This document shows, piece after piece, positions 1-7,312 of a DNA stretch of 64,000 nucleotides (positions within the stretch are counted from its first letter, which is position 1; the number at the start of each line of letters is the position of its first letter). The DNA is taken from positions 62,001-126,000 of the forward strand of contig JALWFG010000005.1 of assembly GCA_027038965.1 (NCBI GenBank), in the 5' to 3' direction. Under the pieces are notes generated by a model that made no database searches, was not told the origin of the DNA, and saw nothing but the letters and a program-made list of their open reading frames with translations. The position numbers and the translations under genes were made by a program. The DNA comes from Candidatus Desulfofervidaceae bacterium. GTDB lineage: Bacteria > Desulfobacterota > Desulfofervidia > Desulfofervidales > Desulfofervidaceae.

Positions 1-836
1 GAGGTAGCCCCAATCTCTTTTTCTTCTCCTTTGGCAGCCTCATCTAATGTTTTTTCCATAAAATAAGAATATTTAAGTTCCTTGAGAGACTCTTGAAATA
101 CCTCTTGTCTAAGCTTGACTACAATTCGTCTAGGATCAAGGCCATTTTCCAAAAATTGAAGGAGAGAGCTCTTATATTTTTCAGCCATATCTATAACTGT
201 ATGAAGAAGCTCTTCACTTTCATCTTCTTTCATTCCCCTTTTAGCAAAAATAGACCTTAATTCTTCCAAAAAGGCCGTTGGGACAACCACAGTTTCTTCA
301 CGAGGCACCCAGCGTCTCCTTGGGGTATATACATCCCCAAAAAAATCCTCAAAAAAACGCGAAAATTCTGTATCAAATATGTCAAATATTCGATTTATGG
401 GTTCTGAAGTAGATACCCAACGGGTAAGGGTAATTTGAGTAAATGCTCTGTCTTTCTCTCCCTTTAATTCCTTTTCTAAGGCGTTTTCTATGTGCCTAAG
501 GGTAGCCTTTAAGACTTCATCTATCAGTCCCGGAATATAATTTTGCGAAAGGGAATTCTTTATCCGCATAAGGTCATTTCGATATGAAGATATAACCCTA
601 TCTAATTGGTCATAAAACATATTTAAGGTCTTATTAATTTCTGCCTTAGCATGTTCAGGATGAAGTCCTTTTTTTTCAAGCCAGCGCGTAAAAGGATTTT
701 TCCCATTAGTATTAAATAGAGCCCACAAAAAATGGTCAGTATCTACATATCCTTCCTGCCGTTTCTGAGCGAGATCTTCTGCCTTTTTGAGCAATTGTTC
801 TGCAACAGAACTTACTTTTTTCTCTTTCCAAGTCAT
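1..836 (-). CDS. Clp N-domain protein (ClpA/ClpB/ClpC-like), C-terminus cut off by window edge
   Basis: About 278 codons are visible, reading leftward out of the window. The start ATG (834-836) has a good ribosome site (GGAGG, 5 bases upstream). Residues 11-41 read VAEQLLKKAEDLAQ followed by GYVDTDHFLWALF, the pattern of the first Clp-N repeat (compare YVGTEHLLLALL in ClpA/ClpB), which in the family binds substrates or adaptors for an AAA+ unfoldase. The rest of the visible part is charged and helical and does not look like standard ClpB: I do not see the usual linker to the first ATPase domain, and no Walker motif falls inside the window. It is divergent from the BrxC/PglY-PglZ gene with 138 bases between them, so the two may share control. 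Whether an AAA+ module follows cannot be judged here. Confidence 0.6.
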   Translation of the reverse strand, partial: MTWKEKKVSSVAEQLLKKAEDLAQKRQEGYVDTDHFLWALFNTNGKNPFTRWLEKKGLHPEHAKAEINKTLNMFYDQLDRVISSYRNDLMRIKNSLSQNYIPGLIDEVLKATLRHIENALEKELKGEKDRAFTQITLTRWVSTSEPINRIFDIFDTEFSRFFEDFFGDVYTPRRRWVPREETVVVPTAFLEELRSIFAKRGMKEDESEELLHTVIDMAEKYKSSLLQFLENGLDPRRIVVKLRQEVFQESLKELKYSYFMEKTLDEAAKGEEKEIGAT

Positions 837-974: not shown

Positions 975-3900
975 ATGAAACTGATTGGGGATCTTATCCT
1001 CCTTCCTGAGTTAAAGACCGTCATTCATTTAAAAGACGCCTTTGGACCAGAGGCCAATGCCCTAAAATCAGAACTTGTTTTTACTAAAGAGGTGGCCCGG
1101 GCATTTCAAGCAATCTATCACAGCCTTAAAGAAGAAAGGGGGAAAGGCTTTTTTATTGAAGGGGGATATGGTAGTGGTAAGTCGCATTTTTTGGCTGCTT
1201 TGTATCTTTACTTATCTCATGCTCAAACTCCGCCTTTGCTGGATATTCCCAAAATTAAAGGCCAATTTTTGGTTATTCCTATTTCTTTGATAGATTATGG
1301 GAGTGAAATTAGACTTCAAGAAATCGTTTTAGAAGCCATTAATAGCGAGCTCCAAAGACAATTTCAAACGAGTTTTGTTCCCTCTGAGTTTTTCGAAGAA
1401 TTAAAAAAAATCATTCCTCAAGAGGAACTTACGGCCTTAGGCAAGCACCTCGGTGTCCCTTCTCAAGAGTTATTTCAGCTTCAATATTGGCCTTATCTAC
1501 ATGAAATCTTGGAAACTCTCCCCCTTTCTTTCCGTCCGGTCATAGAGAGGCGTTCCCTATTTGATCATTTAAAGAACGTCATTTTTGAAAAGGGATTAAG
1601 GGGAGTAGTTATCCTTATTGATGAATTATCTGAATTTTTAAAATCAAAGTCTGCTTCTGGGGGCTTTCAGGAAGATATTCGCTTTTTACAGTTTTTAGGA
1701 GAAATGAGTCAAGAAATACCTCTTTGGATCATTGCTACGCTTCAGGAACGTATAGAGACTACCGGGGATATCCCTCAAGATGCCTTTGCTAAAATAAAGG
1801 ACCGCTACCCTGTTAGACTCATTTTTGCGGGGAGCCATATTGAAGAAATCGTGAGTGAACGTTTGGTTAAAAAACGACCTGGGGCTCGGGGGTACCTCAG
1901 AGAGCTTTATGACAATTTCAAACAAACATTCAAACAGCTTCCCTTTGATTGGGAAACCTGGTATCGGCTTTACCCGATTCATCCCTTAACTATTCAACTT
2001 TTAGATGAATTAAGAGGGCTTTTCTCTCAAGCCAGGGGAGCGGTTGATTTTGTTTATAGTCGACTTAAAGGAGACTCAAAAAGAAATATTCCTCCCCTTC
2101 TTAATGCCCCTGCCCAAACACTTCTTTCCCCAACCGCCATTTTTGACCATTTTTTGGACCGTATTCGAGAAACTCTAGAAACAAATCCTTATTATGAAAA
2201 AGTATACTGTTTCTATGAAAAACTCATTCCTAAATTATTTCCTGACCCAGAAACGAGGCAGGTAGCCCTCGAACTCATAAAACTTTTAATTCTTATGGCT
2301 ATTTCCCCCATTGTCCATCGGCCAAACACAAGGGAACTGGCCTTGGCCATTCTTTATCCCTTTACTGACCTAGACCCGGCCCTCAATTTTCGTTTTGTGC
2401 ATGATATTTTATCATCCCTTGTCCAAGAAGGAGCTTATCTGCACCGGGAACCTCAGGAAGACTTTTTAAAAGATAGATTTTATCTTGATTTAGAAGAAGA
2501 CACCCAATTTATTGTTAAAAAACGCTATGAACAAATTGCCAGTGAAATTAAATCTAAGGATTCAAGAATCTACCATTTTTTATATACTTCGGCCCATAAG
2601 GGGCTGATCCCCTTTTCTGAACTTCATTTTAACCAAAAACAAAAATTAAAAGTCCTGTGGCAAAATACCTACCGTTTAGGGGAAATTCACTTCATTTCTG
2701 TAAATCAGCTTGAAGACACTTTGAGCCAGATCGATTTAAAGGCAAGTGACTTTTATCTTCTCATTTTAAAACATCCCCTTAAAGACGATTTTTCTCCCCC
2801 TTCTATTCCTCCTGGAGTGGCAATTTGGGAACCAGCCGAAGTTCAAGAAGATTTTTTAAAAAAGGCCTATGTATATGCTCAATTATTAGAACGGTATCAA
2901 GATGATCAAACACAGCGTGGTCAGAGGTTTGCCAAATTTATAAAGGAGCTATTTGAGGAAAGTTTGCATCAAGCAGTGCAAGAGCTTACTTGGTCTTATC
3001 TTCAAGGCGCTCTTCACCTCAGTCAAAACGAGACCTTTCAGGTAACGGCCTTAAGCCAGAAGAGCTGGCTGTCTTTTGTGGAAGGCATCGCCGCCTTGAT
3101 TTTGGAAAAAAGACATCCCAAACACCACCTTATTGCTCCTCACTTGTTGCCCCCACCTCTTTCTAGACGACAACTTATAGTAGAAAAATTGATTATTCCT
3201 GGAGAAATTTATCTCAAACGAGGAGAAGGCACCTTAAAGACCCTGATTGATGGACTTTTGCGTCCTTTGGGAATATTAAAGAAGGTTTCAGGGGGATATC
3301 GGCTTTGGCTTGAAGCCAAAAGGTCTCCTATTTTAGAGAAAATTCTTGACCTTTTTGCGAATTCGGTTTCTGTATCTCAAAATGAATTATATGAAATCCT
3401 CCATTCTAGTGATTTTGGCCTTTGTAAAGAGCAATATGAACTCCTGCTTCTGGCCTTAATTCACACCGGAAAACTTGTTCCCTACCATCAAAATAAGCGT
3501 GTCTCTCCCTTTAGGGTTAATTTAGGAAATCTTCATCAGATAACTCATTTAAAACAAATAGAACAACTTGACACCCAAGAAATGACCTTGCTTAAAAACC
3601 TGCCCTTTTTACCTCCATCTTTGCAAGGAAAGGAATTAACTGTAACACACCAAGAAGCCCTCTGGCACTCTTTAAAGGAATTTAAAGAAATGTATTATCC
3701 TAAGGCTATTGCCCTTGAAACCTTTTTAAAGACGCATATTGCCCATCCCCTTTTTACAGAAGGGATTCCGCTTGCCCAAGAAACTATCCAGACAATAAAG
3801 AAGTTATGTGAGGCAGTAAGGTCTTCCTATGCGCCTACCTTGGGGTTAAAACATTTTTGTGAAGCCCTAAAACAAATAAGCTTTATAGACTTTGTTTATG

Positions 3901-5936
3901 CTAGATTCAAGGCCCTTGTAGAATTTTACAGCTTAAAAGAACGCATTCTTTTTATTTATGATTACCTTCATCATCCCGACCTTCAGATTCCTTCTGAGCA
4001 CAAGGAAGTTAAAGAACTTTTTCAAGCGGCAAAGGCCGCCTTATTAAAGGCAAATATCCTTTTTGAAACCCAAAGCCTTCCTCTTATAGAAGAAAAATTT
4101 AACGCCTTTTTTAATGCCTATACTCACGCCTATAAAGAAGCTCACGACCGACTGCTAGCTGGAGAACGTTTTGGTCCTTACCTCTCCTTAAGACAAACAG
4201 ATGCTTATAAATTGATCAGACTTTGGGCAAGTATCCCTGTTCTCCCTGCCAGGACATATTTGGATTCAGTAGAAAGGGAAATCAACCAAACGTTAAGGCA
4301 AATCTGCGAAGAGGACGTGTCTTTACATCTTGCAAAGTCTCCAGTATGCATATGTGGTTGGCATTTGGGAGAAAGACCTTTTTTGCCCCCCTTGGCCAGG
4401 CTTCAAGCCCAGCTTGAGGAAGGAATAGATGCCTGTTTAAATGCCCTCTGTCTTCCTCCCTTAAGACCAAGGCTTGAACAATACATCGTTAGTCTTAGAG
4501 AAATCGGTAAGGAGAAGGAAGCTCAAGAAATGGTCCAAATATTTAATAAGTCTTTAGATTTTGAGACCCTGCTTAAATTAACGCCTTATATTAAAAAGGC
4601 CTTAACTCAAGGGTTGAAAATAGTAGAAAGAAATCTTGACCTTCTAGTAACCCGATTAAAAAGGCAAAGTCTAACCAAAGACCAAATAGAACGCATTTTT
4701 AAAGACTGGTTAGAAGGCAAGGAAGGAGTCAGTTCTGAAACCTATATAAAAATCACTTCTTCTTATTCGGGTATTCCTCCTGCTTTAGAATTGGCAGTAA
4801 GGGAATATGACCCTAGTTTCATTCCCTTAATGAAAAAATGGAAGGAAAACTTTTTTTTACTATTAGTCTTTATCTCCTGGTGCCATTTGCACCATCTTCC
4901 TATAACTTTGGCCGCAGAATTGGCCAAAGTGCCTGAAAGGGAATGGACAGAACGACAAGCAAGTCTTTTAAAATTGGGCCTTCGGTGTCTCCACGAAGAG
5001 GCATTTAAAGAATGGATTGAACACCTTGATCTGGATGAGGACTATCTCTGGCAATACCTTAATCAATATCAATCGGATTTATCTCAAGCCCTTATAGAAG
5101 AAAGAATTTTCCCCTCTATTAAACTTAGAATATTATCAAAATTATTAGAAAAAAAGGCACCTATTCCTATTGAGGCCTTAGATGAAGACCTAAGAACAAT
5201 CTTAAAGGCCTATCAAGGGCTTGAACATCTGATAAATAAATCATTTGATTTTGATACAATTCAAGACTGGGAAAGGTTCTATATAAGGGAATTGAGTAGA
5301 ATGGAAATAAATATAGGTATTTTGGTTGAAAGTTCCTTACCCTCAAAGGCCTATCAAAAGCTGATTAAAAGGCTTTTGGCCTGGCGTAAAGGGCTCGAGC
5401 AGTCATTTAATAGCTTTTATAAAACAAAAAAACGCCTTTCAGTCCCGCTTCCCTCAAAGGGGACAGCTATTTTATTTGATGGCTTAAGATGGGACTTATG
5501 GGAAGATATTAAGAGCATCTTTTTAAAATTAGGGTATAAGCCCCAAAAGGAAGGAGCTTATTGGGCCCAATCTCCCACAGATACCTTCACTCAGCTTTAT
5601 ACTCTGGGCCTTGATACCTACTTTGAGAACATCGCTCCTAACTTGCATATTATCAAGAAAGGAAATCTAAGAATTTTTAAAATTGACGTCATTGATAGTT
5701 ACATTCATAAAACCCATCTTTATCCTCTTTCATTAAAACAGGAAGTTATTCCCATAATAGAAAAAACTGTGATATCTATAACCAAGGGCACCAAAAAGAT
5801 ATTTACTTTTTCTGACCATGGTTTTAAAATGGATTTGCGAAATGCAATTATGCCTTCTTATAAAAGGCCTCTTTACAAACACGGAGAGGTTTCTCCAGAA
5901 GAGGTCATTGTCCCGTGGGCATTTTGGGCAAGATAA
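975..5936 (+). CDS. BrxC/PglY-like ATPase fused to a C-terminal PglZ-like domain
   Basis: This is a 1653-residue protein. Residues 1-450 form a large P-loop ATPase like those of the BREX/Pgl ATPases (DUF6079/PglY/BrxC type): Walker A GGYGSGKS at 63-70 and Walker B VVILIDE at 211-217. A long helical middle, with a winged-helix-like stretch in the second quarter, leads to a C-terminal segment (about 1490-1653) that matches the alkaline-phosphatase-fold PglZ domain. Visible there are LFDGLRWD (1500-1507, metal Asp1502), a Thr-rich nucleophile region SPTDTFT (1533-1539), D1574 and H1578, SDHGF (1613-1617) and a final HGEVSPEEVIVP (from His1636). In known BREX systems the ATPase and PglZ are separate proteins, so the fusion is notable. 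The start ATG lacks a clear ribosome site. No methyltransferase (PglX) lies in the window. Function (phage defence or other) is inferred from the domain families. Confidence 0.7.
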   Translation: MKLIGDLILLPELKTVIHLKDAFGPEANALKSELVFTKEVARAFQAIYHSLKEERGKGFFIEGGYGSGKSHFLAALYLYLSHAQTPPLLDIPKIKGQFLVIPISLIDYGSEIRLQEIVLEAINSELQRQFQTSFVPSEFFEELKKIIPQEELTALGKHLGVPSQELFQLQYWPYLHEILETLPLSFRPVIERRSLFDHLKNVIFEKGLRGVVILIDELSEFLKSKSASGGFQEDIRFLQFLGEMSQEIPLWIIATLQERIETTGDIPQDAFAKIKDRYPVRLIFAGSHIEEIVSERLVKKRPGARGYLRELYDNFKQTFKQLPFDWETWYRLYPIHPLTIQLLDELRGLFSQARGAVDFVYSRLKGDSKRNIPPLLNAPAQTLLSPTAIFDHFLDRIRETLETNPYYEKVYCFYEKLIPKLFPDPETRQVALELIKLLILMAISPIVHRPNTRELALAILYPFTDLDPALNFRFVHDILSSLVQEGAYLHREPQEDFLKDRFYLDLEEDTQFIVKKRYEQIASEIKSKDSRIYHFLYTSAHKGLIPFSELHFNQKQKLKVLWQNTYRLGEIHFISVNQLEDTLSQIDLKASDFYLLILKHPLKDDFSPPSIPPGVAIWEPAEVQEDFLKKAYVYAQLLERYQDDQTQRGQRFAKFIKELFEESLHQAVQELTWSYLQGALHLSQNETFQVTALSQKSWLSFVEGIAALILEKRHPKHHLIAPHLLPPPLSRRQLIVEKLIIPGEIYLKRGEGTLKTLIDGLLRPLGILKKVSGGYRLWLEAKRSPILEKILDLFANSVSVSQNELYEILHSSDFGLCKEQYELLLLALIHTGKLVPYHQNKRVSPFRVNLGNLHQITHLKQIEQLDTQEMTLLKNLPFLPPSLQGKELTVTHQEALWHSLKEFKEMYYPKAIALETFLKTHIAHPLFTEGIPLAQETIQTIKKLCEAVRSSYAPTLGLKHFCEALKQISFIDFVYARFKALVEFYSLKERILFIYDYLHHPDLQIPSEHKEVKELFQAAKAALLKANILFETQSLPLIEEKFNAFFNAYTHAYKEAHDRLLAGERFGPYLSLRQTDAYKLIRLWASIPVLPARTYLDSVEREINQTLRQICEEDVSLHLAKSPVCICGWHLGERPFLPPLARLQAQLEEGIDACLNALCLPPLRPRLEQYIVSLREIGKEKEAQEMVQIFNKSLDFETLLKLTPYIKKALTQGLKIVERNLDLLVTRLKRQSLTKDQIERIFKDWLEGKEGVSSETYIKITSSYSGIPPALELAVREYDPSFIPLMKKWKENFFLLLVFISWCHLHHLPITLAAELAKVPEREWTERQASLLKLGLRCLHEEAFKEWIEHLDLDEDYLWQYLNQYQSDLSQALIEERIFPSIKLRILSKLLEKKAPIPIEALDEDLRTILKAYQGLEHLINKSFDFDTIQDWERFYIRELSRMEINIGILVESSLPSKAYQKLIKRLLAWRKGLEQSFNSFYKTKKRLSVPLPSKGTAILFDGLRWDLWEDIKSIFLKLGYKPQKEGAYWAQSPTDTFTQLYTLGLDTYFENIAPNLHIIKKGNLRIFKIDVIDSYIHKTHLYPLSLKQEVIPIIEKTVISITKGTKKIFTFSDHGFKMDLRNAIMPSYKRPLYKHGEVSPEEVIVPWAFWAR

Positions 5937-6022: not shown

Positions 6023-7312
6023 ATGCTTGATATAAAGTCCTGGGATTGGAATACGAGAGAAAAGCAAATTACAGATATTAACAAATGGAAAGAAAAGTTT
6101 GTTCAAATTCATGAATTTGTGACAAGTGATGATGGTGAAAAAATTGCCGCCGTAGTCAAAACAGAGGATGAAGAATTTACGGTTTGTGTAAACGGTGAGC
6201 CTTGGGAGGCCACTTTTGGAAAGGCTTGGAGTTTAAAGTTTAGCCCTGATGGCCGATTGGCAGTCTTAACCTCAGATGGCATGGAATGGACGGTGGCCGT
6301 AGATGGAGAAGAGTGGGAAAACAAGTTCGATTATGTGTGGGACCTCCAATTTAGCAGAGATGGGAAAAGAATTGCAGCTAAGGCCAAGGCAGAAACTGAT
6401 TATAAAGTTGTGGTAGATGACAATCCTTGGGAAAATGGCTTTTTGGAAATGCGTCAGCTGAAGATTAGCCCCAACGGTGAAAAGGTTGCTGCTAGCGTTC
6501 AGGTGACGCCCTGTGGTGAAGGTGAAATTTTCAAGTTTTTAGAAGGTAATTGGACAGTAGCAGTTGACGGACAAGCTTGGGACAATAAATTTGTGAATGT
6601 TTGGGATATTGCCTTTGCAGAAGATAATGTTCATGTAGCGGCAGAGGTAAGACTCAGCCCAACTCAATATACAATTGCAGTCAACGGTTCTACTTGGTCC
6701 AAGTCTTACGATTGTGTTTGGGCACCTGTTTTTCGTCCCAATTCCATCAGCGTAGCGGCTCCTGTCAAGAAGGGTAAGTGGTATTTGGCCGTAGATGGAG
6801 AAATTGCTTGGGGAAGGGGATTCGCTGAGCTTTGGCATCCGTTCTTCAGTTCTGATGGTAAGTCCATTGGAGCTATCGTTGCCCCTACATTTGGTAAATG
6901 GACCATAGCCGTAGATGGAACGCCTTGGAATGTAACCTTTACTGCGGCTGTAATTGACCCTACCTTCAGTCCTGACGGAAAACGGGTAGCCGCTATTTAT
7001 AAGGAAGATGAACCTGTTGTAGAGTTAGAACCCAAAAAGGTTTGGGGTATGGTAGTAGATGGTCGCCCCTGGCCAGAACAATATCATATGGTATGGCCAC
7101 CTGTATTTAGCCCTGATAGCCGTCATGTAGCTGCCAAAGTAGAAATAAATGGGAAATATACCTTGGCCGTTGATGGCAAAACCTGGAACAGAGAGTTTGA
7201 GGCCCTTTGGAATCCCGTTTTTAGTCCAGATGGAGATAAAATCTTGATTAGAGCCATCGAGGGAGGAAAATATTATCGTCGTATTGTCCCCCTGAGTGAG
7301 TTTTTAGGATAA
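6023..7312 (+). CDS. Trp-rich beta-propeller protein, TmcD-like
   Basis: The 429-residue protein has no signal peptide or membrane segment, so it is probably cytoplasmic. It consists of about nine repeats of roughly 43-45 residues with the pattern W-T-V-A-V-D-G-x-x-W-x-x-x-F-x-x-V-W-x-x-x-F-S-P-D-G-K-x-V-A-A, which resembles WD40/TolB-type propeller blades. I count 24 tryptophans, an exceptional content. The Tmc (transmembrane redox) complex of sulfate reducers contains TmcD, described as a unique Trp-rich protein, and this gene fits that description. However, the cytochrome TmcA, the CCG iron-sulfur protein TmcB and the cytochrome b TmcC are not adjacent, so membership of a Tmc complex is inference. 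The gene has its own promoter and a very strong ribosome site. It could instead be a scaffold for another membrane redox complex. Confidence 0.6.
   Translation: MLDIKSWDWNTREKQITDINKWKEKFVQIHEFVTSDDGEKIAAVVKTEDEEFTVCVNGEPWEATFGKAWSLKFSPDGRLAVLTSDGMEWTVAVDGEEWENKFDYVWDLQFSRDGKRIAAKAKAETDYKVVVDDNPWENGFLEMRQLKISPNGEKVAASVQVTPCGEGEIFKFLEGNWTVAVDGQAWDNKFVNVWDIAFAEDNVHVAAEVRLSPTQYTIAVNGSTWSKSYDCVWAPVFRPNSISVAAPVKKGKWYLAVDGEIAWGRGFAELWHPFFSSDGKSIGAIVAPTFGKWTIAVDGTPWNVTFTAAVIDPTFSPDGKRVAAIYKEDEPVVELEPKKVWGMVVDGRPWPEQYHMVWPPVFSPDSRHVAAKVEINGKYTLAVDGKTWNREFEALWNPVFSPDGDKILIRAIEGGKYYRRIVPLSEFLG

What the first reader, a model, noticed from the sequence alone, without database searches (positions are those of the whole stretch)
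975..5936. One-protein BrxC/PglY-PglZ fusion: candidate undescribed BREX/Pgl-like system
Seen: a 1653-residue protein with Walker A (63-70) and B (211-217) of a large ATPase, and a C-terminal alkaline-phosphatase-fold segment with metal-site residues in PglZ order (D1502, Thr-rich loop at 1533-1539, D1574/H1578, SDHG 1613-1616, H1636). Known: BREX and Pgl systems encode the ATPase (BrxC/PglY) and PglZ as separate core proteins together with a PglX methyltransferase. Inference: the fusion enforces 1:1 assembly and may work without methyltransferase, since none is within 5 kb to the right. The left flank is cut off.
Basis: partly seen in the sequence, partly recalled or inferred. Interest (0 to 1): 0.82.

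Follow-up and report, generated by a model that had tools for sequence, protein, structure and literature searches.

The report
BREX-derived ATPase–nuclease fusion with TPR partner
One giant protein joins two core parts of the BREX anti-virus machinery (its DNA-clamp ATPase and its metal-dependent nuclease domain), and it travels with a small helical-repeat partner rather than the usual DNA-marking enzyme, so it looks like a stripped-down, vertically inherited BREX offshoot whose biological job still has to be tested.

Summary
ORF 975-5936 (1653 aa) is a full-length, Type-3-like BrxC (hhalign 100%, E=3e-40, running to the end of BrxC) followed by the linker and phosphatase core of Type-3 PglZ (hhalign 96%, E=1e-9; six metal-ligand positions invariant in 13 of 13 members). 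It lacks PglZ's first ~300 residues. It is a real family, not a sequencing artefact: 19 of 395 sampled genomes of the phylum carry it.

The new result is a constant partner, a ~335-aa TPR protein. It co-occurs with the fusion in 18 genomes against 3 mismatches, all three cut off by contig ends. It is usually the next gene upstream, but in the window's genome it sits unlinked on another contig. A long RecQ helicase lies between the two in at least six genomes and is absent from the window's order. No PglX passes the curated cut-off in the order; no BrxB or BrxL was seen beside the gene.

All five genomes of the window's family keep it, its tree follows taxonomic families, and no plasmid, phage or viral contig carried it. 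That suggests a resident BREX derivative, not a mobile BREX island. Defence or genome maintenance remains open. The 2026 BREX survey's main text does not describe it.

The parts
975..5936 (+). BrxC::PglZ fusion protein, 1653 aa
975..2234 (+). residues 1-420: ORC/Cdc6-type AAA+ ATPase of BrxC (Walker A 63-71, Walker B 214-217)
   Evidence: most conserved part of the protein (67-76% identity in the family)
2235..4784 (+). residues 421-1270: rest of BrxC, with conserved Cys motif C1111-x13-C1125-x-C1127 matching the C-x13-C-PH-C of Type-3 BrxC; extent approximate
   Evidence: hhalign of alignment A2 with canonical Type-3 BrxC covers profile columns 11-1249 of the fusion and 5-1231 of 1247 of BrxC; Cys residues
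4785..5444 (+). residues 1271-1490: helical linker, the part from ~1410 aligning with the PglZ/PorX linker; extent approximate
   Evidence: low-confidence model predicts helices here
5445..5933 (+). residues 1491-1653: PglZ phosphatase/nuclease core, metal site D1502, T1537, D1574, H1578, D1614, H1615, H1636

Best explanation
A BREX-derived, methyltransferase-free DNA-processing module that has become a resident chromosomal function. Shown by homology: one polypeptide carries a whole Type-3-like BrxC and the catalytic half of PglZ, with an intact metal site, and it co-occurs with one dedicated TPR protein. Inferred: the BrxC part assembles on DNA through its AAA+ domain and uses ATP binding and hydrolysis to gate the attached PglZ core, which nicks DNA or cleaves oligonucleotides with Zn/Mn; the TPR protein takes the bridging or regulatory role that BrxB and the PglZ N-terminus have in BREX; in lineages that have it, a long RecQ helicase opens the DNA. 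Because the pair is retained across a family and is not grouped with defence genes here, my lean is DNA surveillance or maintenance of the cell's own genome (about 50%) over phage restriction (about 40%).
For: Full-length BrxC match, PglZ core match with complete metal site. TPR ortholog and fusion co-occur 18:1:2:374 in 395 genomes, Fisher p=6e-28 without phylogenetic correction, including three genomes where they are unlinked (G000, G002, G074) and one where they lie on different contigs (G298); the three mismatches are cut by contig ends, and in G003 the first 15 codons of a fusion follow the TPR gene. Overlapping ORFs in G001, G004, G233, G182 and others indicate an operon. Long RecQ directly upstream in at least six genomes. 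Fusion and TPR trees both follow taxonomic families. No plasmid, phage or viral-contig copy. BREX PglZ is a metal-dependent nuclease (PMC12205998) and the BrxC AAA+ domain binds BrxB:PglZ(1-98) (PMC13326643).
Against: No experiment. No reliable structure: AlphaFold2 with two sequences gave pLDDT 56 and 42 and the fold search was not significant. The metal site could serve another phosphodiester substrate. RecQ is absent from the window's order and several other fusion genomes, so it is not essential. The gene moves between chromosomal positions within the family, and the G298 copy sits beside an integrase-like gene and a DNA methylase. Only one phylum was sampled. Deeper vertical inheritance (between families) was not tested against a species tree.
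Confidence: 0.6

Rival explanations
1. A minimal anti-phage system: the TPR protein senses infection, the BrxC ring finds phage DNA by its structure rather than by missing methylation, and the tethered PglZ core nicks it, with RecQ as an accessory helicase.
For: Both halves come from a defence system. Patchy across the phylum (19 of 395 genomes). The G298 copy lies next to an integrase-like gene and a DNA methylase with a nuclease-like domain; decayed in G024. PglZ active-site mutation cuts BREX defence by about 3 logs (PMC12205998).
Against: No self-marking enzyme, housekeeping neighbours in most loci, kept by every genome of one family, gene trees following families; not seen on plasmids or phages.
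Confidence: 0.4
2. An oligonucleotide phosphodiesterase: the PglZ core removes cyclic or linear oligonucleotide signals, as in PorX, and the BrxC part is a sensor; DNA is not the main substrate.
For: The closest solved structures by profile are PorX response regulators (E=9e-8, against 0.0075 for PglZ), whose PglZ domain cleaves cyclic and linear oligonucleotides (cited in PMC12839542).
Against: No cyclase-like neighbour was noticed in the loci read. BREX PglZ cleaves both DNA and oligonucleotides, so the resemblance does not discriminate (PMC12205998).
Confidence: 0.15
3. A conventional BREX system whose other genes (pglX, brxB, brxL) are simply elsewhere in the genome.
For: Other N6-type methyltransferases exist in the genome (weak partial NF033452 matches), and here even the TPR partner is unlinked.
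Against: No PglX over the curated cut-off in any of six genomes of the order; no PglX, BrxB or BrxL seen in ~20 kb around the gene in relatives; the PglZ N-terminal part is missing.
Confidence: 0.03

Closest known systems
BREX Type 3 (BrxC, BrxXI/PglXI, BrxHII, PglZ, BrxA, BrxF/BrxB-like)
   Same: Closest relatives of both halves by profile: best PADLOC model is the one that the Type-3 BrxC of this phylum matches over its full length (PDLC02482); PglZ without C-terminal add-on domains; N-terminal motif 'GDLI...VVQL' and Cys motif shared.
   Different: BrxC and PglZ are separate genes there (about 1245 and 670 aa), with PglXI and a helicase nearby. Here they are one protein, PglZ has lost its first ~300 residues, and no PglX accompanies it.
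BREX-Related (BR) Type 3 with a small PglZ and DUF499 (PMC12839542, PMC13326643)
   Same: BrxC-like ATPase combined with a PglZ reduced to its catalytic domain.
   Different: BR Type 3 keeps separate proteins, has a BrxB homologue and an MTase/helicase, and uses DUF499, not DUF6079/BrxC.
PorX (response regulator with PglZ domain)
   Same: Helical linker plus PglZ phosphodiesterase core; best solved-structure match for the C-terminus.
   Different: PorX has a receiver domain and no BrxC; it regulates Type IX secretion.
HerA/FtsK-centred BREX-related capture system (PMC12839542)
   Same: DUF6079 and PglZ used outside classical BREX.
   Different: Seven separate components; no TPR or RecQ named.

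Membership tests
BREX (any type) | BrxC/PglY ATPase (DUF6079) | tested here: met
   (as a domain; below the full-length NCBIfam BrxC cut-off)
BREX (any type) | PglZ with phosphatase/nuclease core | tested here: met
   (core only; N-terminal ~300 residues absent)
BREX (Types 1-3, 5, 6) | PglX/BrxX N6-adenine methyltransferase | tested here: not met
   NF033452: 0 of 6 genomes of the order over cut-off; not seen in flanks
BREX Type 4 | BrxL plus phosphorothioation genes (PAPS reductase, DUF4007) in the locus | tested here: inconclusive
   not seen among the ORFs around the gene by reading; no family search for these genes was run
BREX (all types per PMC12839542) | BrxA- and BrxB-like components | tested here: inconclusive
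   not seen as neighbours; not searched genome-wide by profile; could be hidden in the fusion's middle part or replaced by the TPR protein
BREX (any type) | phage restriction | not testable with these tools
   needs an infection assay
PglZ / alkaline phosphatase superfamily | metal-ligand set D, T, D-x3-H, DH, H in order | tested here: met
   D1502, T1537 (12/13), D1574, H1578, D1614, H1615, H1636 (13/13)
PglZ / alkaline phosphatase superfamily | fold | tested here: inconclusive
   model of low confidence; PglZ 9zn5_B at rank 8 with E=0.11

The most novel reading that the evidence does not exclude
BREX machinery has been domesticated: a BrxC::PglZ single-chain ATPase-nuclease plus a dedicated TPR protein, working with RecQ where present, forms a resident DNA repair or genome-surveillance machine without methylation-based self-recognition.
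Probability: 0.4. Interest if true: 0.8.

Novelty: new variant of a known kind. Interest (0 to 1): 0.62.

Why it matters
How BrxC and PglZ cooperate, and how much of BREX is needed for nuclease action, is open; a natural single-chain BrxC-PglZ with no PglX detected gives a minimal, expressible object to test it. It also suggests BREX parts can become vertically inherited residents of a genome, and it names a previously unlinked partner (TPR protein) that can be tested at once.

Tried and rejected
Pfam PglZ on the single sequence: E=0.3 only; replaced by family profiles. Genome-contig scan: the single-protein scan found no relative and the profile scan only the sister MAG, so other phyla could not be sampled. 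Viral contigs, phages, plasmids: no fusion. RecQ as an obligatory partner: rejected, absent from the order and four other fusion genomes. Chance or artefact of assembly: rejected, same architecture in 12 full-length genes from seven families (f1, f9, f21, f40, f50, f58, f74). Literature: no PglZ+RecQ+TPR or BrxC-PglZ fusion paper found; supplements of PMC12839542 could not be opened and bioRxiv is not held.

Full report
Observation. Window ORF 975-5936 encodes 1653 aa exactly as stated. The window is G000:C5:62001-126000 of a 2.19 Mb genome; its sister MAG in the public collection is named Candidatus Desulfofervidaceae.

Anatomy, shown by sequence. DUF6079 E=6e-41, PADLOC BrxC E=4e-28. A 12-member full-length family alignment (A2) finds solved BrxC chains (9zn5_A, 9zll_A, 9zdx_C; E=7e-17 to 3e-15). 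Against eight canonical BrxC of the same phylum, at least two of them beside PglXI, hhalign gives 100%, E=2.8e-40, over BrxC positions 5-1231 of 1247: the whole of BrxC is there, including a Cys motif (fusion C-x13-CxC, Type-3 BrxC C-x13-CPHC). The C-terminal profile (A3) finds PorX PglZ domains (E=9e-8) and, weakly, PglZ itself, and aligns with Type-3 PglZ (E=3.5e-10; from the linker at about residue 1410 with the full-length profile, E=1.2e-9). Aligned metal ligands: D412/D1502, T448/T1537, D526/D1574, H530/H1578, D571/D1614, H572/H1615, H648/H1636 (the last pair lies beyond the aligned stretch and is placed by the shared HG..S.EE.IVP motif). PglZ's first ~300 residues are missing. Within the window's family the PglZ part is as conserved as the rest (52-65% against 48-61% for the middle and 67-76% for the ATPase), which argues for function.

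Distribution. In 395 genomes of the phylum, 19 carry the fusion, whole or cut; 1650-1765 aa where complete. In the window's family 4 of 5 genomes gave a hit, and the fifth (G003, 81% complete) has the first 15 codons of the gene at a contig end behind its TPR gene. Family f21: 6 of 8, one of them decayed. No plasmid, phage or viral contig copy. Other phyla were not testable here.

Partner genes. Reading the neighbourhoods showed a ~335-aa TPR gene upstream of the fusion, directly or with RecQ between, ORFs often overlapping by 1-17 bases, in 14 of 18 genomes that can be judged (13, G003). Pfam confirms TPR. A profile search of the same 395 genomes separates true orthologs (E <= 2e-65) from generic TPR proteins (E >= 7e-39): both genes 18, fusion only 1 (G175, contig cut inside RecQ), TPR only 2 (G003 and G373, contigs cut), neither 374; Fisher p=6e-28 (the genomes are related, so the p value overstates). 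In the window's genome the TPR gene lies on contig 11, beside relA (L062:9032-10072); it is also unlinked in G002 and G074. In six genomes a RecQ-type helicase of about 800 aa (DEAD, Zn, RQC, HRDC) stands between or next to them; the order of the window has no RQC-type RecQ at all.

Evolution. Fusions form one group apart from canonical BrxC (support 100, short outgroup sequences); both trees group genomes by family. In G001 the order is TPR-fusion-tmcD, in the window fusion-tmcD, so the TPR gene has probably moved away from the fusion, while both were kept (inference). Contrast: the same genome has a real defence island on contig 16 with Gabija, Ppl, a DUF499-like ATPase and a separate 298-aa PglZ.

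Mechanism. Homology shown; activity inferred from BREX work: PglZ is a Zn/Mn nuclease dependent on Thr and His of this site (PMC12205998), the BrxC AAA+ domain binds BrxB:PglZ(1-98) and is proposed to load on DNA (PMC13326643; PMC12839542). The fusion removes the need for the BrxB bridge, and the TPR protein is the candidate regulator (inference). Whether it restricts phages or handles host DNA is undecided; retention and context lean to the latter.

Novelty. The January 2026 BREX survey text contains neither RecQ, TPR, nor a BrxC-PglZ single chain; full-text searches found none. Its supplements could not be read and bioRxiv is not held. It fails the PglX criterion for most BREX types, so I call it a BREX-derived variant, not a BREX system.

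Noticed in passing
G000:C16, locus L004:2646-13571: Defence island in the same genome: GajB/UvrD-like helicase, GajA (Gabija), AlbA-type ATPase, Ppl-like PHP-ATPase, a separate 298-aa minimal PglZ (PF08665 E=3e-7) and an 807-aa DUF499/HmaC-like ATPase in one block; the DUF499-like + minimal PglZ pair resembles BR Type 3 without its methyltransferase nearby.
   Followed up: partly
window 6023-7312: TmcD (NF045725, E=4e-167) directly downstream of the fusion; in G001 what looks like the whole tmc set follows the fusion on the same strand.
   Followed up: no
L043:5524-7917, L046:6475-8853, L048:2178-4577, L051:5006-7399, L056:4704-7097: Unusually long RecQ (about 800 aa) with ~190 extra residues between the helicase C-terminal domain and the Zn-binding domain.
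   Followed up: no
L044:7354-8652 (G298): DNA methylase (N6_N4_Mtase) with a C-terminal staphylococcal-nuclease-like domain, next to an integrase-like gene and the fusion; a possible one-protein modification/cleavage gene.
   Followed up: no
window 3-836 and 975: clpB-like gene diverges from the fusion with only 138 bp between them; possible shared stress-responsive promoter region, not analysed.
   Followed up: no
G024:C44 (L030): TPR gene fragment and fusion fragments decayed side by side, consistent with joint loss.
   Followed up: partly
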